DNA from: Microbacterium sp. 4R-513 | Lineage (GTDB): Bacteria; Actinomycetota; Actinomycetes; Actinomycetales; Microbacteriaceae | NCBI RefSeq assembly: GCF_011046485.1 | Contig: NZ_CP049256.1 | Location: 682,001 to 746,000, forward strand | Direction: 5' to 3' | DNA: 64,000 bases | Part shown: positions 7,417 through 64,000 of the stretch, piece by piece | Numbering within the stretch: position 1 is the stretch's first letter | How the letters are laid out: the number at the start of each line of letters is the position of its first letter | Program-made: the position numbers and the translations under genes | Notes under the pieces: generated by a model | Told to the model about the DNA's origin: nothing | Seen by the model: only the letters and a program-made list of their open reading frames with translations | The model's database searches: none

Positions 7417-8901
7417 TCAGCTCGCGTCGCCGCGGCGACGGCGCGCCGTGTAGACGGTCATCGCGAGACCCGCGAGGAGCGCGATGGCACCTGCCGCGAG
7501 GTAGCCCGCCTGGAACACGCTGCCCGTGACGGCGAGCGTCTCGGGGTCGGACGGGTCGCCGGCCGAGGTCGTGACGGGGACCGACGTCGTCGACGCGGGG
7601 TTGGCGCAGAGCGCGGTGGCCTGCGGGTAGGTGATCGACGTCTCGTACGACGGGTTCACCTCGAAGCGCACCGTGACGCCCTGACGCGTCCACTTGAAGT
7701 TGCCGTCGGTCTCGATGTACTTGCCGTCGACGAGCGCCCAGCCGGGCCACATCTTCGGCTCGGCCGCCGAGGCGCCCGGCCAGAGGATCTTGCCGGTGAG
7801 GGGCTGATCCGCCACGACATAGTCGTCGCCCGACGGGTTCACGAAGCGGATCGTCAGCGGCGTCTGGTCGTCGGTCGTGTAGCCCTCGGGCAGGTCGACG
7901 TCGTACGAGAGGTAGGGGACGTCGCCCTGGCACACCGCGAGGATCTTGCCCGGCACGAGGTCTTCGTCACACGCCTCGCTGTCGGCGGCGAGCTGCGCGA
8001 GGCTGGGCACCTCCCAGACCGTCTTGGCGTCCGCGGCGAAGACTGTGCCCGCGCGCAGCAGCGCCGTCCAGATGGTCGTGCCGTTCGCGCCCGGCTCGGA
8101 CGCCCACTCGACGTCGTCGCTCTTCTCGATCCAGCCGGCGGTGTCGCACGTGCCCGGCTCGAACTCGAGCGCGGGGCTGACGGGAGTCGGCTCGTAATCC
8201 GGAGCGCACCGCTCGTCGGTCGGCAGCAGCTGGGCGAGGCTCTGGATCGTCCACTGCGTCGTCTGGTCGACGGCGAAGATCGTCCCCGGCTTGGGGGTCG
8301 CGGTCCACGTCGTGGTGCCGTCGCTGTTGCTCGTCGGCGTCCACGTCACGTTCTCGCTGAGCGTGAGCGTGCCGGCCGCCTTGCACGTCGGGAGTGTGAG
8401 GTCGAGCTCGGGGATCACCACGGTGGGCTGGACCTCGGGCGTCGTGCCCTTGCAGACGATCCAGTGCGACACCGCGGACTGCTGGCCCCCGTTGTTCTCG
8501 GGCGACGCGTACGCGACTCCGGCGACCGGGTGCACGATGACGTTGTTCCAGTCGCTCCCGCCCTTGACGACGAGGAGCTCCCAGTGGTCGCCGGGCCACG
8601 ACTGGTCGAACGCGTTGAGCGTCACCGTCTTGCCGTCGTCGGTGATGGAGCCGTGGCTCGTGTCGCCCTCGCTCGAGTAGCACGTGGCGTTGTGCGCCGC
8701 GTAGAGGGCCTCCCAATACTCCGGGTGGTTCGAGTCGGGCGTCCACTCCACAAGCGTGCCGACGGTGCCCTTGAGCTCCGCGGGTGAGTCGTCCTTGGCT
8801 GCCGAGGCGCTTCCGGTCACGAGCGGAGCGACGACGAGAGCGGCGGCGAGGACAGCGCCGGCAAGCGCGGAGAGTCGCCGATTGATGCGCACTTCGAGCA
8901 C
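7417..8901 (-). CDS. LAVTG-anchored surface protein, 494 residues
   Basis: I chose the GTG at 8901 because a GGGGAAGGAA ribosome binding site lies 5 nt before it and a clean signal peptide follows (basic start, hydrophobic to about residue 30, cut near SASAA). Earlier starts give non-secretory sequence. Two repeats of about 65 residues, each ending SLAQL, fill the middle. They are followed by a module with CQGDVPYL, WPGA and EVNPSYETSITYPQAT that also occurs before the anchor of the two giant neighbours. The C-terminus has LAVTG (residues 456-460), a membrane helix and RRRR, a sortase signal of the LAxTG class used by class E sortases. It is probably covalently wall-anchored. Its ligand is unknown. 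No sortase gene lies in the window. Confidence 0.85.
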   Translation of the reverse strand: MLEVRINRRLSALAGAVLAAALVVAPLVTGSASAAKDDSPAELKGTVGTLVEWTPDSNHPEYWEALYAAHNATCYSSEGDTSHGSITDDGKTVTLNAFDQSWPGDHWELLVVKGGSDWNNVIVHPVAGVAYASPENNGGQQSAVSHWIVCKGTTPEVQPTVVIPELDLTLPTCKAAGTLTLSENVTWTPTSNSDGTTTWTATPKPGTIFAVDQTTQWTIQSLAQLLPTDERCAPDYEPTPVSPALEFEPGTCDTAGWIEKSDDVEWASEPGANGTTIWTALLRAGTVFAADAKTVWEVPSLAQLAADSEACDEDLVPGKILAVCQGDVPYLSYDVDLPEGYTTDDQTPLTIRFVNPSGDDYVVADQPLTGKILWPGASAAEPKMWPGWALVDGKYIETDGNFKWTRQGVTVRFEVNPSYETSITYPQATALCANPASTTSVPVTTSAGDPSDPETLAVTGSVFQAGYLAAGAIALLAGLAMTVYTARRRRGDAS

Positions 8902-9042
8902 GCGTATTCCTTCCCCAAGACGGCGTGGACAGGCACACCGAAACCTCCAGCGCGTTCGGGTCGACGCTGTAGCGGCTTCCGCACGCCCTCCCGCTCCCCC
9001 AGGGGCGGGCCGAGATTCCACTCTCGGACGGGGTGCGCACAC

Positions 9043-9095
9043 CGCGTTCTCGAACACTATCCGGGAATCGCCCCTGTGCGAAATCGAGTGCCTGC
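9043..9095 (-). promoter_or_regulatory. Possible promoter of the 494-residue surface protein gene
   Basis: Within the gap 8902-9126, a minus-strand TTCGCA and a TAGTGT hexamer 17 nt apart give a moderate sigma-type match about 140-190 nt before the GTG. It does not resemble the promoter motif shared by the two larger surface genes. The rest of this gap holds nothing else I recognise. Confidence 0.35.
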
Positions 9096-9126
9096 ACGGC
9101 GGGGACGCAGTCCAGGCGCGCATGGG

Positions 9127-9160
9127 GAGAGGCCCCCCGACGAGCGTCGGCGGGCCTCTC
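9127..9160 (-). terminator. Terminator of the 2997-residue surface protein gene
   Basis: A 9-bp perfect outer stem (GAGAGGCCC with GGGCCTCTC), one mismatch and a further GC-rich inner stem lie 16 nt beyond the stop at 9176. Confidence 0.7.
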
Positions 9161-9175
9161 CTGGCGGAGTCCGGG

Positions 9176-18169
<8,994 letters not shown>

Positions 18170-53707: not shown

Positions 53708-57205
<3,498 letters not shown>

Positions 57206-57367
57206 GGGAATTCCTCCGTGGGCCCGTGAGGGCCCGTTTCCTTGTCGTCAGGTGGAGTGCTCGTTCTTCCCCATAGCCCGCATGTCGCACACCGCGATGA
57301 AGCGGGGGCACGCGGGCGCAGCCGACCACCATATGAGGGCAGGGGGAATCCAAGAGCGCAACTACCA

Positions 57368-57396
57368 ACTATACGTCGTTCGACGCGCCATGTCCA
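57368..57396 (-). promoter_or_regulatory. Predicted rpoBC promoter
   Basis: TGGACA (57391-57396) and TATAGT (57368-57373) are exactly 17 nt apart on the minus strand, near consensus. The stretch between it and rpoB (57206-57367) holds no gene. A plus-strand promoter begins only 9 nt away. Confidence 0.75.
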
Positions 57397-57405
57397 GCGC
57401 GATTC

Positions 57406-57434
57406 TTGACGAGGGCCTGATGCTGCGGTATAAC
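57406..57434 (+). promoter_or_regulatory. Predicted promoter of the first STAND gene
   Basis: TTGACG (57406-57411) and TATAAC (57429-57434) are 17 nt apart on the plus strand, near consensus. The start site would be near 57441, about 85 nt before the ATG at 57526. It is back to back with the rpoBC promoter. Confidence 0.7.
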
Positions 57435-57509
57435 CCGGGATTTCGGCCTCGGTTCACGGCCCCGGGATACGGGAACAGGATGCCGGGGCATGACATTCCC
57501 GCCCGGTCC

Positions 57510-58003
57510 GGGCCATGATGTGGTCATGGCTGGGGCCCACCGTCCCGCGATCCGCACGCCCGACCAGCGGATCCGGGTCTTCGTCAGCTCGACCCTCCGC
57601 GAGCTCGCCGACGAGCGCGCCGCCGCGCGCGCCGCGATCGAACGCATGCGCCTGGCACCTGTCATGTTCGAACTCGGCGCCCGCCCGCACCCGCCCCGCG
57701 AGCTGTACCGCTCCTACCTCGAGCAGTCCGACGTGTTCGTCGGCATCTACTGGGAGAGCTACGGCTGGGTCGCCCCTGACGAGCAGATCTCCGGCCTCGA
57801 GGACGAATACGACCTCGCCCCCGCCACGATGCCCAAACTCATCTACATCAAGGCATCCGAGAACCGCGAACCCCGCCTCAAGCAGCTCATCGCCCGCATC
57901 CAGAAAGACGACCACGCCGCCTACCTCCCCTTCCACACCGCCGAAGAACTCCAAGACCGCATCGCCGACGACCTCGCCACCCTCCTCGCCGAACGCTTCG
58001 ACG
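57510..58003 (+). repeat. Direct repeat, copy 1 (5' part of first STAND gene)
   Basis: These 494 bp match 60195-60688 at all but two positions, and both differences are synonymous (CTC/CTG and CCT/CCC). The match begins 16 nt before the ATG and stops abruptly after the DUF4062 region. Confidence 0.95.
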
Positions 58004-60141
58004 CGGCCGGGGCGGGGGCCGAGGCATCCGGAGAGGATCCGGCTCTGGGCAAGGTCCCCGTGCCGTACTCCTCGACGATCGGCAGAGAGGACGACCTGCG
58101 GCGGGTGCGCGAGCTGCTCGTGAAGGGCGGCGACCGCGTCGTGACCCTCGCGGGTCCCGGCGGCATCGGCAAGAGCCGTCTCGCCATCGAGGTCGCCCGC
58201 GCGAGCGGCGACCTCTTCCGCGACGGCGTGTATTTCGTGCTGCTCGAGGGCGTGCACGAGCCCGGCCTGCTCCTGTCGACGATCGCCTACTCGCTCGGCG
58301 TCCGCGACAGCGGCGCCGTCGACCTCGAGGAGCGCATCGCGCACGCGCTCGCCGGCCGCCGCGTGCTCATCGTCCTCGACAACTTCGAGCAGATCGTGGA
58401 TGCCGCGCCCGTCCTCGTCCGCCTCTACACGGCCGCCCCGCTCGCGACCTTCCTCGTCACGAGCCGCGTCCTGCTGCGCATCCGCGGCGAGCAGGTCTAC
58501 GAGGTCGAGGCGCTGTCCGCACCCACGGCGTCCGAGCCCGCCACGATGCATCGCGCCCGGCGGTCGTCCGCCGTCGCGCTCTTCGTCGACCGCGCGCGGG
58601 CGGTCCGGCCCGACTTCGTCCTGACCGACGAGAACGTCGGCCACGTCGTGAGCATCTGCCGGCGCCTCGACGGCCTCCCCCTCGCGATCGAGCTCGCCGC
58701 GGCCAAGGTGCGGGCGCTCAACCCCGCCGCGATCGACCGGCGGCTCGAGCAGAGCCTCCCGATGCTCGCGGCGACCTCGCGGGACCTGCCGGAGCGGCAC
58801 CGCACGATGCGGGCCGCGATCGACTGGAGCGTGAGCCTCCTCCCCGCCGTCCAGCGCGACCTCCTCGAAGACCTCGGGGTCTTCGCGACCCGGTTCTCGC
58901 TCGACGCCGTCGAGGCGGTGAGCGAGGGGCGCAGCTGGCGGGACGAGGTCCTCGACGCGCTCGGCGCGGTGGTCGACGCATCCCTCGTCAAGCAGGTGGA
59001 TGTCGGGGGGCGATCGACCTTCTCTCTGCTCGCCACGGTCCGCGAGTACGCGCTCGGGCGACTGGAGGAGCGCGGCGAGGCCGAGACGATGCGCCGGGCG
59101 CACGCCGACTACTACGCCGATCTCGTCCGCCGCCTCTCACCGGACCTGCGCGGGCCCGCGCAGATCGAGACGGTGCGGCTGCTGAGCCTCGAGCTGTCGA
59201 ACCTCCGCGCGGCGGTGCGGCACCTCGTCGCCAGCGATCGGCTCGACGACGCCGGCGACTTCGCGTGGGAGCTCTTCGTGTACTGGTGGATCTCGGGCTT
59301 CTTCAGCGAAGTGCGGCTGTGGATGCTGGAGCTGCTCGAGAAGCGGTATCCGATCTCCACCCGCACGCGAGCCGTCGCGGTCTTCTTCACGGTGTGGGGC
59401 GAGATGTGGCGGCGTCCGTCGGAGGAGGTCATCGAGCGGCTGGGCGAGTCGTCGCGGCTCTTCCAGGAGAGCGGGGACGCGGATGCCGCGGCCATGGCGC
59501 TGGCCGCGCGGGGCTCGACCCGCATGCGGTTCCCCGACCTCGACATGCCCGCCGCGCAGGCCGAGGTCGAGCAGGCGCGGGAGGTCTTCCACCGCCTCGG
59601 CAACTGGTGGCTCGAGGCGCTGACGGATGTCGCGCTCGGCCTCCTCGCGATGGCCCGTGGCGCCTTCCCCGAGTCGCTCGAGCACTTCGAGCGGGCGACG
59701 GCCACCGGCGTCCGCGAGAAGGACGCCTTCACGCAGGTCGTGGCGGGCAACAATGTCGCGCGCGTGCGGCTGCTCGGCGGCGACGTCGACGGCGCGGTGG
59801 CGATGTACCGGACGACGCTCGAGCTCGCGGCCCTCCTGCACTACGACGAAGGCGCGCAGTACGCCCTCGAGGGGATGAGCGCCGTCGCCGCCCTGCGGGG
59901 CGACGCGTGGCAGGCGGGCGCCCTGTCCGCGGTCGCGGCGGCCATCCGCCAGCGGGTCGGGCAGTACGACGTCGAGGGCTTCGCCGGCCACCGGGAGCAG
60001 CTCGAGGCCGTGCGCGCGTTCCAGCCGGAGGCCGTGGCGGCGGGAGAGCAGGCGGGCGACGACATGAGCATCGCCGAGGCGTACGCGCTGGCCCTTCCCG
60101 ACGCCGACGTCGCCGTTCAGCGCGCGCTCGCGCAGTGGTGA
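57526..60141 (+). CDS. STAND NTPase: DUF4062, NB-ARC and TPR-like domains (copy 1), 871 residues
   Basis: I chose the ATG at 57526 because the sequence shared with copy 2 brackets it; an in-frame ATG at 57490 also exists. DUF4062 spans about 15-115 (RVFVSSTLRELADER, FVGIYWESYGW). The NTPase core has Walker A GPGGIGKS (210-217), Walker B LIVLDN (281-286), VTSR (311-314) and GLPLA (383-387). A winged-helix-like segment and helical TPR-type repeats fill about 500-871. No DNA-binding HTH, membrane helix or known nuclease is visible. The layout is that of NLR-like signal-transducing ATPases: a C-terminal sensor, a nucleotide switch and an N-terminal effector or adaptor. A role in phage or stress response is inference. 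Residues 1-159 are identical to copy 2. Confidence 0.85.
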   Translation: MAGAHRPAIRTPDQRIRVFVSSTLRELADERAAARAAIERMRLAPVMFELGARPHPPRELYRSYLEQSDVFVGIYWESYGWVAPDEQISGLEDEYDLAPATMPKLIYIKASENREPRLKQLIARIQKDDHAAYLPFHTAEELQDRIADDLATLLAERFDAAGAGAEASGEDPALGKVPVPYSSTIGREDDLRRVRELLVKGGDRVVTLAGPGGIGKSRLAIEVARASGDLFRDGVYFVLLEGVHEPGLLLSTIAYSLGVRDSGAVDLEERIAHALAGRRVLIVLDNFEQIVDAAPVLVRLYTAAPLATFLVTSRVLLRIRGEQVYEVEALSAPTASEPATMHRARRSSAVALFVDRARAVRPDFVLTDENVGHVVSICRRLDGLPLAIELAAAKVRALNPAAIDRRLEQSLPMLAATSRDLPERHRTMRAAIDWSVSLLPAVQRDLLEDLGVFATRFSLDAVEAVSEGRSWRDEVLDALGAVVDASLVKQVDVGGRSTFSLLATVREYALGRLEERGEAETMRRAHADYYADLVRRLSPDLRGPAQIETVRLLSLELSNLRAAVRHLVASDRLDDAGDFAWELFVYWWISGFFSEVRLWMLELLEKRYPISTRTRAVAVFFTVWGEMWRRPSEEVIERLGESSRLFQESGDADAAAMALAARGSTRMRFPDLDMPAAQAEVEQAREVFHRLGNWWLEALTDVALGLLAMARGAFPESLEHFERATATGVREKDAFTQVVAGNNVARVRLLGGDVDGAVAMYRTTLELAALLHYDEGAQYALEGMSAVAALRGDAWQAGALSAVAAAIRQRVGQYDVEGFAGHREQLEAVRAFQPEAVAAGEQAGDDMSIAEAYALALPDADVAVQRALAQW

Positions 60142-60158
60142 GCAGGTGACACGCGCCG

Positions 60159-60172
60159 ATCTGCATGCAGAT
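60159..60172. promoter_or_regulatory. Perfect 14-bp palindrome before the second STAND gene
   Basis: ATCTGCATGCAGAT lies in the 69-nt gap between the two STAND genes, just before an alternative in-frame ATG at 60175. It could be an operator or simply a short palindrome. No equivalent is present upstream of the first copy. Confidence 0.35.
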
Positions 60173-60194
60173 GCATGACAGGAGACGGTGCTCG

Positions 60195-60688
60195 GGGCCA
60201 TGATGTGGTCATGGCTGGGGCCCACCGTCCCGCGATCCGCACGCCCGACCAGCGGATCCGGGTCTTCGTCAGCTCGACCCTGCGCGAGCTCGCCGACGAG
60301 CGCGCCGCCGCGCGCGCCGCGATCGAACGCATGCGCCTGGCACCTGTCATGTTCGAACTCGGCGCCCGCCCGCACCCGCCCCGCGAGCTGTACCGCTCCT
60401 ACCTCGAGCAGTCCGACGTGTTCGTCGGCATCTACTGGGAGAGCTACGGCTGGGTCGCCCCCGACGAGCAGATCTCCGGCCTCGAGGACGAATACGACCT
60501 CGCCCCCGCCACGATGCCCAAACTCATCTACATCAAGGCATCCGAGAACCGCGAACCCCGCCTCAAGCAGCTCATCGCCCGCATCCAGAAAGACGACCAC
60601 GCCGCCTACCTCCCCTTCCACACCGCCGAAGAACTCCAAGACCGCATCGCCGACGACCTCGCCACCCTCCTCGCCGAACGCTTCGACG
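60195..60688 (+). repeat. Direct repeat, copy 2 (5' part of second STAND gene)
   Basis: This is the partner of 57510-58003, offset 2685 bp, with two mismatches in 494 bp. Outside it the two genes diverge clearly at both DNA and protein level. Confidence 0.95.
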
Positions 60689-62835
60689 AATCGCGCGAGG
60701 CTCGCGACGACGCCGCGCCGGAGTCCGTCGAGCAGCTCGCGGGGAAGGTGCCCGTGCCCTATACGGCCACGATCGGCCGCGAGCGGGATCTGCAGGGTGT
60801 GCGCGAGCTGCTCGCCGGCGACCACCGGGTCGTGAGCCTCATCGGCCCGGGCGGGATCGGCAAGAGCCGCCTGGCCATCGAGACGGCGCTCGCGACCGCC
60901 GACCTGTTCCCGGACGGCACCTACTTCGTGCCCCTCGAGGGCGTCTTCGAAGCGGGGCTGCTCCTCCCGACGATCGCGTACTTCCTCGGCATCCGCGACA
61001 ACGGCGAAGCGGCGCTCGAGGAGCGCATCGCGCACGCTCTCGCCGGCCGCCGCGTCCTCGTCGTGCTCGACAACTTCGAGCAGATCGTGGATGCCGCGCC
61101 CGTCCTCGTGCGCCTGTACGACCTGGCCCCCCTCGCGACCTTCCTCGTGACGAGCCGGATCGTGCTGCGCATCCGCGGCGAGCAGGTGTACGACGTCGGA
61201 GCGCTCACGACCCCCGACGAAGCCGTGCCGACGTCACTCGAGCGTGCCCGGCGATCGACCGCCTGCGCCCTCTTCGTCGACCGCGCCGAGGCCGCCAAGC
61301 CGGGATTCGAGCTCACCGACGAGAACGCCCAGTCGGTCGCCGACATCTGCCGTCGCCTCGAGGGCCTTCCGCTGGCGATCGAACTCGCCGCCGCCAAGGT
61401 GCGGCTGCTGACGCCCCAGGTGATCGCCGAGCGTCTGCAGCAGAGCCTTCCGCTCCTCACGGCCGCCGTGCGCGATCTGCCCGAGCGCCACCGCACGATG
61501 CGCGCGACGATCGACTGGAGCGTGAGCCTGCTGCCGCCGGAGCAGCGCGACCTCCTCGAGGATCTCGGCGTCTTCGCGCGGCGGTTCACACTCGACGCCG
61601 TCGAGGCGCTGGGCGTCGGGCGATCGTGGGAGGGGCAGGCGCTCGACGGCCTCACGGCGCTCATCGACGGGTCGCTCGTGAGGTCGTTCGAGATGGCGGG
61701 GCAGTCGGTGTACTCGCTGCTCGCGATCGTGCGCGAATACGCGCTCGGGCGCCTGAAGGAGCGGGGCGAGGCCGACCGGATGCGCGCCGCTCACGCCGAC
61801 TACTACGGCACCGTGGTCACGCGGCTGGCCCCGAGTCTCCGCGGTCGCGGCCAGGCCGACGCCGTCGCCCAGCTCGGCCTGGAGCTGCCGAACCTCCGCG
61901 CCGCCGTCCGCCACCTGATCTACACCGACCGGCTGGACGACGCCGGCGACTTCGCCTGGCGCCTGCTCATCTACTGGTGGATCGCCGGATTCTTCGGCGA
62001 GGTGCGCGTCTGGATGCTCGAGCTCCTCGAGAAGGAGCAGCCCATCACGCAGCACACGCGCGCCGTCGCGTGGTTCTTCGCACTGTGGGGCGAGATGTGG
62101 CAGCGGCCGAGCGAGCAGGTCGTCGCGGGTCTCGGCGAGTGCGTGCGGCTGTTCGCGGAGAGCGGGGACGAGGATGCGTCGGCCATGGCCCTCGCGGCCC
62201 GTGCGACGGCACGCATCCAGTACTCGGGCGACGACATCGAGAAGGCCGAGGCCGAGCTCACGGAGGCCGTCGCGAAGCTGCACGACATCGGGAACAACTG
62301 GGCCGAGGCCATCACGCTCGTCTCGCTGGCCCGCCTCGCGTGGGTGCGCGGCGACACCGACCTCGCCCTCCAGCGGTTCGACGAGGCCGCGGGTGTCGCC
62401 CACGCGAGCGGCGACATCTTCACCAGCTCCGTCGCCGGCAACCTGCGCGCCCGCCTCAACTTCCTGAAAGGCAAGGTCGAGGAGGCCGAAGCGGAGTTCG
62501 TCGAGACCCTCCACCTGTCCATCCGGCTGCACTACGACGAGGGCGTCGCCTACGGCCTCGAGGGCGTCTGCGCCATCGCGGCCGCGCGGGGCGACGCCTG
62601 GCGTGCGGGTGCGCTCGCGAAGGCCGCCGAGTCGATCCGCCACCGCATCGGCGTATTCGACGCGGAGGCCTTCACCGTCCACACGCCCTACCTCGAGGCG
62701 CTCCGCGAGAGCGACCCCGACGGCGTCGCGGCGGGCGAGCGGGACGGTGCCGAGCAGAGCCTCGCCGAGGCGGTCTGCGTAGCGCTGCCCGATGCGGATC
62801 AGTCCGCCGTCGCGACGACGCTGGCGCACTGGTAG
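60211..62835 (+). CDS. STAND NTPase: DUF4062, NB-ARC and TPR-like domains (copy 2), 874 residues
   Basis: The architecture is the same as copy 1: DUF4062 (about 15-115), Walker A GPGGIGKS, Walker B LVVLDN, VTSR, GLPLA and a helical TPR-type C-terminus. The first 159 residues are identical to copy 1, while the sensor-like C-terminal half is clearly divergent. It follows copy 1 by 69 nt in the same direction and is probably co-transcribed. The ATG at 60211 is preferred, with an in-frame ATG at 60175 as alternative; neither has a strong ribosome binding site. It ends 9 nt from the convergent PxpB-PxpC gene. Two proteins with one shared effector-like domain and different sensors would fit recognition of two ligands; that is inference. 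Confidence 0.85.
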   Translation: MAGAHRPAIRTPDQRIRVFVSSTLRELADERAAARAAIERMRLAPVMFELGARPHPPRELYRSYLEQSDVFVGIYWESYGWVAPDEQISGLEDEYDLAPATMPKLIYIKASENREPRLKQLIARIQKDDHAAYLPFHTAEELQDRIADDLATLLAERFDESREARDDAAPESVEQLAGKVPVPYTATIGRERDLQGVRELLAGDHRVVSLIGPGGIGKSRLAIETALATADLFPDGTYFVPLEGVFEAGLLLPTIAYFLGIRDNGEAALEERIAHALAGRRVLVVLDNFEQIVDAAPVLVRLYDLAPLATFLVTSRIVLRIRGEQVYDVGALTTPDEAVPTSLERARRSTACALFVDRAEAAKPGFELTDENAQSVADICRRLEGLPLAIELAAAKVRLLTPQVIAERLQQSLPLLTAAVRDLPERHRTMRATIDWSVSLLPPEQRDLLEDLGVFARRFTLDAVEALGVGRSWEGQALDGLTALIDGSLVRSFEMAGQSVYSLLAIVREYALGRLKERGEADRMRAAHADYYGTVVTRLAPSLRGRGQADAVAQLGLELPNLRAAVRHLIYTDRLDDAGDFAWRLLIYWWIAGFFGEVRVWMLELLEKEQPITQHTRAVAWFFALWGEMWQRPSEQVVAGLGECVRLFAESGDEDASAMALAARATARIQYSGDDIEKAEAELTEAVAKLHDIGNNWAEAITLVSLARLAWVRGDTDLALQRFDEAAGVAHASGDIFTSSVAGNLRARLNFLKGKVEEAEAEFVETLHLSIRLHYDEGVAYGLEGVCAIAAARGDAWRAGALAKAAESIRHRIGVFDAEAFTVHTPYLEALRESDPDGVAAGERDGAEQSLAEAVCVALPDADQSAVATTLAHW

Positions 62836-62844
62836 CCGGCGGCG

Positions 62845-64000
62845 TCAGCTCGACGGGCGCGCGTGCCGGAAGCGCAGCCGCGTCCCCGGCCGGGCCTGCG
62901 CGATCGCGTCGAGCGAGGCATCCGTCGCCACGGCGATGACGGGGTAGCCGCCCGTCACCGGACCGTCCGCCAGGAGGATCGTGGGGCGGCCGCTCGGCGG
63001 CACCTGCAGCGCGCCCGGCACCATGCCCTCGCTCGGCAGCTCGCCCTCGCGGGACCGGGCGAGGGCCGGACCGTCGAGCCGGACGCCGACGCGATCGGCG
63101 TCGTTCGTGACGGTCCAGATCGCCTCGAAGAGGTCGCGGTGGGCGGAGGCCGCGAACCAGTCGGCGCGCGGACCGGGCGCGAGCTCCACCTCGAGCAGGT
63201 CGTCGTGCGGCGCTCCCCACGGCGCGATGGCCGAGGTCGGTATGGCGACGGATGCCTCGTCCCGAAGTGCCAGCTCGTCGCCCGCGTGCAGAGGCCCCGC
63301 GCCGAGCCCCGCGAGGAGGTCGGAAGAGCGCGACCCGAGCACCGCCGGGCCGTCGAAGCCCCCGCGGACGGCGAGGTAGGCGCGCGCGCCGTGGGCGAAC
63401 CAGTCGAGATTCAGCTCTGCGCCGCCGGGCCACGGATGAGCCTCGTACGGATCGACCTCGTGGCCGTCGAGGCGGATCGGCCCCCAGGCGCCGGCGACGG
63501 CGAACCAGAGGTCGGCGACGGCGACGGCGCGGAAGCCGCCCATCGTGACCTCGATGCCGGCGGCTCCCTCGTCGTTGCCGACGAGACGGTTGGCGGTGCG
63601 CAGCGCTCCGCGGTCGAGTGCTCCCGACGGCGCGACGCCCAGCGCGGCGGACCCGGGGCGACCCAGGTCCTGGAGGACGGCGAGGAGCCCGGGATCGACC
63701 ACGCGGATGCCGGGGCGGTCGGCCGCTCTTCGGCTCGTGGCCCCCCTCGGCTCTCTGTCGGACGACGGGCTCGAGGCTGCTTCGTGCGCGGGCCGTGCGT
63801 CGCCGTCCGCCGCCCGGACGGCCGCTCGCACCGGCCGGAACCGCACGTGCACGCCCGGCGCGAGGAGCGCGGGGGACGCGGCATCCGGATCGAACAGCGG
63901 CGCGGAGGTCTTCGCGATGAGCCGCCAGCCCCCCGGGGTGTCACGGGGATAGGCACCCGAGAAGACGCCGGCCAGGCCGATCGACCCGGCCGGAACGCGC
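62845..64000 (-). CDS. pxpBC: PxpB-PxpC-type fusion (allophanate hydrolase subunit 1/2 family), 5' end beyond window
   Basis: The frame is open to the right edge. The first about 49 residues (VPAGSIGLAGVFSGAYPRD, then WRLIAKTSAPLFDPD) match the end of subunit 1 (PxpB/AHS1). A low-complexity linker of about 45 residues follows, then a full subunit 2 (PxpC/AHS2) domain starting GIRVVDPGLLAVLQDLGRPG, with PSGALDR and DGPVTGGYPVIAV. In bacteria PxpA, PxpB and PxpC form an ATP-dependent 5-oxoprolinase; related pairs act in urea amidolyase. The two subunits are usually separate genes and are fused here. PxpA is not visible and may lie beyond the edge. Confidence 0.88.
   Translation of the reverse strand, partial: RVPAGSIGLAGVFSGAYPRDTPGGWRLIAKTSAPLFDPDAASPALLAPGVHVRFRPVRAAVRAADGDARPAHEAASSPSSDREPRGATSRRAADRPGIRVVDPGLLAVLQDLGRPGSAALGVAPSGALDRGALRTANRLVGNDEGAAGIEVTMGGFRAVAVADLWFAVAGAWGPIRLDGHEVDPYEAHPWPGGAELNLDWFAHGARAYLAVRGGFDGPAVLGSRSSDLLAGLGAGPLHAGDELALRDEASVAIPTSAIAPWGAPHDDLLEVELAPGPRADWFAASAHRDLFEAIWTVTNDADRVGVRLDGPALARSREGELPSEGMVPGALQVPPSGRPTILLADGPVTGGYPVIAVATDASLDAIAQARPGTRLRFRHARPSS

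What the first reader, a model, noticed from the sequence alone, without database searches (positions are those of the whole stretch)
57510..60688. Tandem NLR-like STAND genes share a 494-bp near-identical 5' block ending at the domain edge
Seen directly: 57510-58003 and 60195-60688 differ at two synonymous positions, while the remaining about 700 codons of each gene diverge strongly. The block covers 16 nt of upstream DNA and the DUF4062 region only. Inference: gene conversion or recent copying keeps the effector/adaptor half identical while the NTPase and TPR sensor halves diversify, as expected for a two-sensor, one-output system.
Basis: partly seen in the sequence, partly recalled or inferred. 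Interest (0 to 1): 0.85.

Follow-up and report, generated by a model that had tools for sequence, protein, structure and literature searches.

The report
Tandem immune genes sharing one effector
Two neighbouring bacterial immune-receptor-like genes keep the DNA of their presumed killing domain almost identical, apparently by copying it from one gene to the other again and again, while their sensing halves stay different, much as mammals do with the Toll-like receptors TLR1 and TLR6.

Summary
Confirmed and extended. The 494-bp blocks differ at two synonymous sites; the rest of the two STAND/NLR-like genes is 71% identical. In 15 of 24 A/B pairs compared, the DUF4062 block is 94.9-100% identical within the genome and less alike to every other fetched species (87-97%); the bodies do the opposite, 69-72% within and 80-96% to the same-type gene elsewhere. 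Trees conflict accordingly. The tract ends at codons 159-162, where a disordered linker begins, in 13 of 15. Of 48 adjacent pairs, 19 hold a near-identical stretch in DUF4062, none in NB-ARC or C-terminus. This is recurrent, domain-limited gene conversion. DUF4062 is a newly reported TIR-like NADase (PMC13174449); E94 aligns with its catalytic position. Best reading: two sensors share one NADase output, probably antiphage. That function is inferred: nine of 24 pairs persist at 80-85% block identity, and neutral homology-driven conversion is a serious rival. The closest analogue is mammalian TLR1/TLR6. Papers listed by eight searches showed no bacterial NLR case.

The parts
57406..57434 (+). 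Sigma70-like promoter TTGACG-N17-TATAAC between rpoB and gene A
   Evidence: Read from the sequence printed; a TTGACG...TATAAC site is also visible upstream of L071 A, and TATAAC upstream of L072. Not tested experimentally.
57490..57519 (+). Promoter-like leader of gene A, ATGACA-N18-CATGAT, 6 nt before the ATG (possible leaderless start)
   Evidence: Exact match, mean 0.05 in shuffles at up to 1 mismatch; similar hexamers before head genes of other species.
57510..58003 (+). Homogenised block, copy 1 (gene A): 16 nt of leader plus codons 1-159
   Evidence: 494 nt, 2 mismatches to copy 2.
57526..60141 (+). Gene A: TIR-like DUF4062 - linker - NB-ARC - helical repeats, 871 aa
   Evidence: Pfam; full-length model pLDDT 85.9, pTM 0.72; closest bodies L070_883, L071_1480, L034_8001.
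57574..58005 (+). TIR-like (DUF4062) domain of gene A, residues 17 to about 160
   Evidence: Secondary structure of the models; Pfam DUF4062 at residues 17-98.
57805..57807 (+). Codon of E94 in gene A, predicted catalytic Glu
   Evidence: Invariant in the 42-row and 48-row alignments; aligns with Ala at chain residue 84 of KpSwz, read here as the E97A mutation of the deposited protein.
58006..58047 (+). Disordered linker (residues 161-174 of A), where the tract stops
   Evidence: pLDDT < 50 at residues 161-174; A and B differ in sequence and length here.
58084..58707 (+). NB-ARC domain of gene A (residues 187-394)
   Evidence: PF00931, E 6.1e-8.
59080..60132 (+). C-terminal helical-repeat (TPR-like) putative sensor of gene A, residues 519-869
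   Evidence: All-helical in the model; no TPR family was matched.
60138..60149 (+). Possible relic of an older coupled start of gene B (GTG AGC AGG TGA, overlapping the stop of A)
   Evidence: In L034, L037, L036 and others a GTG overlaps A's TGA at the start of B. Inference.
60175..60204 (+). Promoter-like leader of gene B, ATGACA-N18-CATGAT, apparently acquired from gene A
   Evidence: Exact match. Of the 18 pairs printed, an A-like leader before B is seen only in the window, L070 (degenerate), L071 and L072.
60195..60688 (+). Homogenised block, copy 2 (gene B)
60211..62835 (+). Gene B: same architecture as A, 874 aa; body 63% identical to A at protein level
   Evidence: Pfam; closest bodies L070_3562, L071_4174; protein identity.
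60490..60492 (+). Codon of E94 in gene B
   Evidence: The 159-residue block is identical to A.
60799..61395 (+). NB-ARC domain of gene B (residues 197-395)
   Evidence: PF00931, E 9.7e-6.

Best explanation
Genes A and B are tandem STAND/NLR-type genes, each with an N-terminal TIR-like domain (DUF4062), an NB-ARC switch and a helical-repeat putative sensor. SHOWN: recurrent ectopic gene conversion between the neighbours rewrites the TIR-like domain, from its first conserved residues (or from the promoter-like leader in the window's own clade) to the disordered linker, while the NTPase and sensor bodies persist as two old, separate lineages. INFERRED: in the window clade the leader-bearing 5' end of A was copied into B, leaving a relic of B's old coupled start; elsewhere the donor may have been B. 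INFERRED: the homogeneity is kept by selection because two sensors with different triggers feed one NADase assembly. TIR-type enzymes act as oligomers, so identical effector domains can co-assemble, whereas slightly different ones could spoil mixed assemblies. Activation would deplete NAD+ and abort phage infection.
For: Block within > between in 15 of 24 compared pairs at 94.9-100%, bodies the reverse. dS within pair 0-0.13 in the block, 0.54-0.78 in the body. Body tree: A1-A15 and B1-B15 in separate groups (SH-aLRT 91; 100 in the 30-row DNA tree). Block tree: 15 of 15 pairs sister, and 3 of the 9 other pairs. AU test: block rejects an A clade (p 2.7e-5), body rejects the window pair as sisters (p 3.6e-56). 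Right edge at codon 158.7-162.0 in 13 of 15, linker disordered at 161-174. Of 48 adjacent pairs, 19 have a 100-nt window >= 97% identical in DUF4062, 0 in NB-ARC, 0 in the C-terminal part. DUF4062 reported as TIR-like NADase and antiphage executioner (PMC13174449); E94 aligns with the KpSwz catalytic position.
Against: Nine of 24 A/B pairs stand at 80-85% block identity with both genes intact, and single-copy species occur, so identity is not required. DUF4062 is the best-conserved part, so homology-driven recombination may favour it without selection, and the non-homologous linker may be a mechanical barrier. NB-ARC alone does not give one A clade: A of the window clade falls beside B of the other clade (p-AU 0.06), so the bodies may hold an older mosaic. 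Nine adjacent pairs in six genomes of other genera are unconverted, as are the NPDC019599 pair and three pairs taken to share a metagenome contig because contig lengths agree (77.5-84.1% block identity at protein level). One NB-ARC patch of the window pair reaches 95 of 100 nt. No activity, phage or oligomer data; no PADLOC hit.
Confidence: 0.78

Rival explanations
1. Neutral hysteresis: conversion is driven by homology alone. DUF4062 evolves slowest and stays above the recombination threshold, the bodies have fallen below it, and the edge is simply where homology ends. No benefit of a shared effector is needed.
For: Tract edges coincide with loss of homology at the linker. Pairs at about 80% keep both genes. 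More divergent neighbours and the third paralogue of the window genome are not converted.
Against: In seven of the nine unconverted pairs NB-ARC is nearly as alike as DUF4062 (73.0-80.2% against 80.1-84.3%; the other two, L072 and L076, 68-69% against 84-85%), with exact runs of similar length, yet 0 of 48 adjacent pairs show a body tract against 19 in DUF4062.
Confidence: 0.35
2. The block is a mobile effector cassette, exchanged between species as well as between neighbours; within-genome identity is partly a by-product of importing one cassette into both genes.
For: At fourfold sites the block differs by 0.07-0.21 and the body by 0.24-0.43 in 8 of 8 chosen comparisons between converted species, but about equally in 6 of 7 other comparisons. 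Microbacterium sp. NPDC019599 A is 96.7% identical to the window in the block, 75.4% in the body, at protein level. One block-tree branch (support 91/97) holds all converted rows plus rows with other bodies.
Against: Among the 15 pairs the block tree largely follows the body tree, as vertical descent with local conversion would give. The NPDC019599 case rests on protein sequence only.
Confidence: 0.25
3. Assembly artefact: a repeat was collapsed or copied during assembly.
For: Near-identical repeats can be mis-assembled; raw reads were not available.
Against: The pattern recurs with species-specific sequence in 15 genomes, some held as one contig; in 11 of 15 pairs the two copies differ at one or more sites.
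Confidence: 0.01
4. Recent whole-gene duplication followed by very fast divergence of the bodies.
For: Tandem layout and shared architecture.
Against: Body dS within pair 0.54-0.78; bodies are closest to the same-type gene of other species; body data reject the window pair as sisters.
Confidence: 0.01

Closest known systems
Mammalian TLR1/TLR6 gene conversion (PMC2077338; abstract and part 1 of 2 of the discussion read)
   Same: Tandem innate-immune paralogues; independent conversions in several species; nearly constant tract edges; most of the TIR domain homogenised while the ligand-recognising part keeps orthologous identity.
   Different: Here bacterial STAND proteins and an N-terminal TIR-like domain that ends at a disordered linker; converted and unconverted pairs coexist in one genus.
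DUF4062 TIR-like NADases: Swarozyc (KpSwz) and TEP1 (PMC13174449, preprint; abstract, part 1 of 6, figure legends and search passages read)
   Same: Same domain family; catalytic Glu position conserved; DUF4062-NTPase-repeat order resembles TEP1, NWD1 and NWD2.
   Different: KpSwz has an auxiliary portal-binding domain instead of NB-ARC; 'gene conversion' and 'paralog' do not occur in its main text.
Long-lasting concerted evolution in prokaryotes, 26 genes such as tuf (PMC6053082; passages only)
   Same: Paralogues more alike than orthologues through recurrent conversion.
   Different: The passages seen describe genes, not one domain of a gene whose remainder diverges.
Bacterial NLR-related / STAND antiphage proteins, for example bNACHT25 and Avs5 (listings and abstract starts only)
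   Same: Central NTPase linked to sensing and defence; the effector-switch-sensor order is recalled.
   Different: The listings seen do not mention homogenised effector domains between neighbours.

Membership tests
DUF4062 (PF13271) TIR-like NADase family | Profile match above the curated cut-off | tested here: met
   72.4 and 72.9 bits against a cut-off of 24.7.
DUF4062 (PF13271) TIR-like NADase family | Conserved catalytic Glu (KpSwz E97) | tested here: met
   E94 aligns with the mutated position of the KpSwz chain and is listed as invariant in 42 and 48 rows.
DUF4062 (PF13271) TIR-like NADase family | TIR/NDT-like fold | tested here: inconclusive
DUF4062 (PF13271) TIR-like NADase family | NAD+ hydrolysis | not testable with these tools
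   Needs purified protein.
Swarozyc defence system | DUF4062 followed by the auxiliary portal-binding domain | tested here: not met
   DUF4062 is followed by NB-ARC in proteins of 871 and 874 residues, against a 326-residue KpSwz chain. The auxiliary domain itself was not searched for.
STAND / NLR-like protein | Effector - NB-ARC/NACHT NTPase - repeat architecture | tested here: met
   PF00931 above cut-off in both; helical repeats in the model of A; GPGGIGKS and GLPL readable in both proteins (motif meaning recalled).
Known antiphage system (PADLOC-DB 2023) | Match to a PADLOC model | tested here: not met
   0 families for either protein at E 0.01.
Concerted evolution by gene conversion | Paralogues within a genome more alike than orthologues between genomes, also at synonymous sites | tested here: met
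Concerted evolution by gene conversion | Discrete tract in phylogenetic conflict with its flank | tested here: met
Concerted evolution by gene conversion | Non-reciprocal transfer rather than crossing over | tested here: inconclusive
   Bodies and gene order are kept, which fits non-reciprocal transfer; no parental DNA can be seen.

The most novel reading that the evidence does not exclude
Bacterial NLR neighbours share one TIR-like NADase effector as a common, recombining cassette. Ectopic conversion, and probably exchange between species, keeps the effector identical across two sensors so that both build the same mixed NADase assembly. This would be bacterial convergence on the TLR1/TLR6 solution, with neutral-site change of the cassette slowed wherever it converts.
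Probability: 0.35. Interest if true: 0.85.

Novelty: new variant of a known kind. Interest (0 to 1): 0.74.

Why it matters
It is a replicated natural experiment on how an immune receptor family can keep different recognition parts while locking its executioner. It predicts that two different bacterial NLR-like sensors act through one NADase assembly, which can be tested directly, and it parallels TLR1/TLR6 in mammals. It also warns that trees built on the DUF4062 domain of these proteins can follow the genome rather than the gene.

Tried and rejected
Assembly artefact and recent whole-gene duplication: rejected as far as sequence allows. RNA structure as the cause of block identity: 150-nt windows against 40 codon-preserving shuffles gave z between -2.5 and +2.3 in four genes; the first window was -1.3, -2.5 and -2.3 in three converted genes and 0.2 in the unconverted one, too weak to build on. 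GC-biased conversion: third-position GC of the block is mostly lower, not higher, than in the bodies of converted genes. Known defence system by profile: no PADLOC hit; NCBIfam hits far below cut-offs (HaaT, AfsR). Fold search: KpSwz is not among the rows shown for the TIR-like model (library up to 8 April 2026); it was found by sequence. Conversion in other genera: 9 adjacent pairs in 6 loci, longest exact DUF4062 run 38 nt, none converted, although two Agromyces pairs, L048 and L054, are among the 19 with a near-identical stretch. Literature: eight searches of open-licence PMC papers; four of the lists were capped (15 of 36, 20 of 66, 15 of 21 and 12 of 43 shown), and none of the papers shown, by title and abstract start, reports gene conversion in DUF4062 or bacterial NLR genes.

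Rows dropped: DUF4062 hits of 140 aligned residues or fewer and frames of 500 residues or fewer (for example the L023 fragments and the 46-residue remnant in L045); 14 gene copies listed as duplicates, of which the two of L070 were put back. The 78 matching genomes include the window's own; I fetched stretches from 36 of them, own included, choosing those with neighbouring matches plus some single-copy ones; a few more are represented by named records. The 24 A/B pairs were picked by me from the table plus L070; the count over 48 adjacent pairs uses all neighbours under 3500 nt apart in the set and does not depend on that pick. The 15 comparisons of fourfold sites were also chosen by me.
Full report
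WHAT IS THERE. Genes A (57526-60141) and B (60211-62835) lie in tandem, divergent from rpoB. Both encode DUF4062 (residues 17-98) followed by NB-ARC; the model of A ends in an all-helical C-terminus. The 494-bp block is confirmed, with two third-position differences. Body identity is 78% over NB-ARC, falling to 66% over the C-terminal part; one NB-ARC patch near codon 267 reaches 95 of 100 nt. The host genome is one 3.91-Mb contig with a third paralogue at 625 kb, 68% identical in the DUF4062 part. The closest named relatives are Microbacterium species.

THE DECISIVE COMPARISON. Of 366 Microbacterium genomes, 78 have a DUF4062 match at E <= 1e-40. I fetched stretches from 36 of these, own included, and pooled them with loci from named records. 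Among 24 pairs compared as A/B, 15 have a block identity within the genome of 94.9-100%, each above its best match in any other species of the set (87.2-96.7%). Two more, L072 (85.2%) and L073 (84.3%), exceed theirs narrowly; seven do not. In the 15, bodies are 69-72% identical within the genome but 80-96% identical to the same-type gene elsewhere. Example: window and L070 blocks are 99.6% and 100% alike within, 95-96% between; bodies 70-71% within, 86% between. If the block is not moved between species, this needs at least one conversion per lineage, so at least 15. Synonymous divergence in the 15 pairs is 0-0.13 in the block and 0.54-0.78 in the body.

TREES. In the 67-row body tree A1-A15 and B1-B15 lie in separate groups (quick tree, SH-aLRT 91 for each); in the 30-row DNA tree the A clade has support 100. 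In the block tree all 15 pairs are sisters, as are L072, L073 and L076 among the nine others. The block data reject an A clade (p-AU 2.7e-5); the body data reject the window pair as sisters (3.6e-56). Against a clean picture, NB-ARC alone does not give one A clade (p-AU 0.06): A of the window clade falls beside B of the other clade.

WHERE THE TRACT STARTS AND ENDS. The right edge is at codon 158.7-162.0 in 13 of 15; L037 (136) and L091 (135) end earlier. The left edge lies 12-24 nt after the first codon in 12 of 15, and 11-35 nt upstream of it in the window, L070 and L071. The models place the TIR-like fold at residues 17 to about 160 and a disordered linker at 161-174. Over 48 adjacent pairs, 19 hold a 100-nt stretch at least 97% identical in the DUF4062 part: the 15, plus L072, L076 and the Agromyces pairs L048 and L054. 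None holds one in NB-ARC or the C-terminal part. Nine adjacent pairs in six loci of other genera show none. The pair of Microbacterium sp. NPDC019599 (90.1% at protein level) and three pairs taken to share a metagenome contig (77.5-84.1%) are not converted.

THE UPSTREAM PIECE. The 16 upstream bases belong to a promoter-like leader, ATGACA-N18-CATGAT-N6-ATG, exact before both A and B; similar hexamers precede head genes of other species. In most other pairs printed, a GTG overlapping A's stop, or a start soon after it, opens B. A short GTG frame across A's stop in the window looks like the relic of such a start. So in the window's clade the A-type 5' end seems to have been copied into B and may give B its own transcription (inference).

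MECHANISM. Shown: recurrent conversion confined to one domain. Inferred: it is kept because A and B feed one NADase assembly. For: place, recurrence, edges, enzyme type, and the TLR1/TLR6 precedent (PMC2077338; abstract and part of the discussion), where independent conversions homogenise most of the TIR domain and leave the recognition part alone. Against: 9 of 24 pairs stand at 80-85% with both genes intact, single-copy species exist, and homology-driven recombination may prefer the most conserved segment anyway.

AN UNEXPECTED EXTRA. At fourfold sites the block differs 2 to 4 times less than the body between converted species (8 of 8 chosen comparisons), but about equally in 6 of 7 others; the seventh has ratio 0.54. 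Unbiased conversion between two copies should not slow neutral change (general knowledge), so exchange between species or another bias is suspected. Microbacterium sp. NPDC019599 A has a block 96.7% identical to the window at protein level but a body only 75.4% identical. A wider binning points the same way, but body sites there are near saturation.

CONTEXT. rpoB lies in the flank of 32 distinct loci including the window (38 rows, six of them repeats of the same genome). For seven converted loci (L083, L084, L086, L088, L090, L091, L092) the short fetched flank shows no rpoB, so their position is unknown.

NOVELTY. The parts are known kinds (DUF4062, STAND architecture, conversion in tandem immune genes). 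The combination, effector-limited homogenisation in bacterial NLR-like neighbours, does not appear among the papers listed by eight searches, several of whose lists were capped.

Noticed in passing
window 57406-57434: TTGACG-N17-TATAAC promoter-like site pointing to gene A; a similar site lies before L071 A.
   Followed up: partly
L045:8001-8135 and 8231-10846: In Microbacterium sp. CFH 31415 a stretch matching only the first 46 residues of DUF4062 lies upstream of a B-type gene, suggesting loss of A.
   Followed up: no
G000:C1:1559029-1560206: A further relative in the host genome is matched as two neighbouring pieces in different frames, so it may be broken.
   Followed up: no
L094:3501 (G019:C25:13497-16107): The middle gene of a three-gene cluster is matched as two overlapping pieces in different frames, so it may be broken.
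   Followed up: no
codons about 267-300 of A and B (near 58324 and 61015): A 100-nt stretch of NB-ARC is 95% identical between A and B, higher than elsewhere in the bodies; conservation or a small second tract.
   Followed up: partly
window 57205-62845: In many Microbacterium loci the stretch between rpoB and a KipA-like gene (name recalled) holds one to four DUF4062-NB-ARC genes: a variable cluster at a fixed place.
   Followed up: partly
codons 61-160 of the block in converted species: Codon choice is unusually conserved between converted species (consensus codon share 0.89-0.96 against a mean of 0.75 in the body), with no clear RNA-folding signal there.
   Followed up: partly
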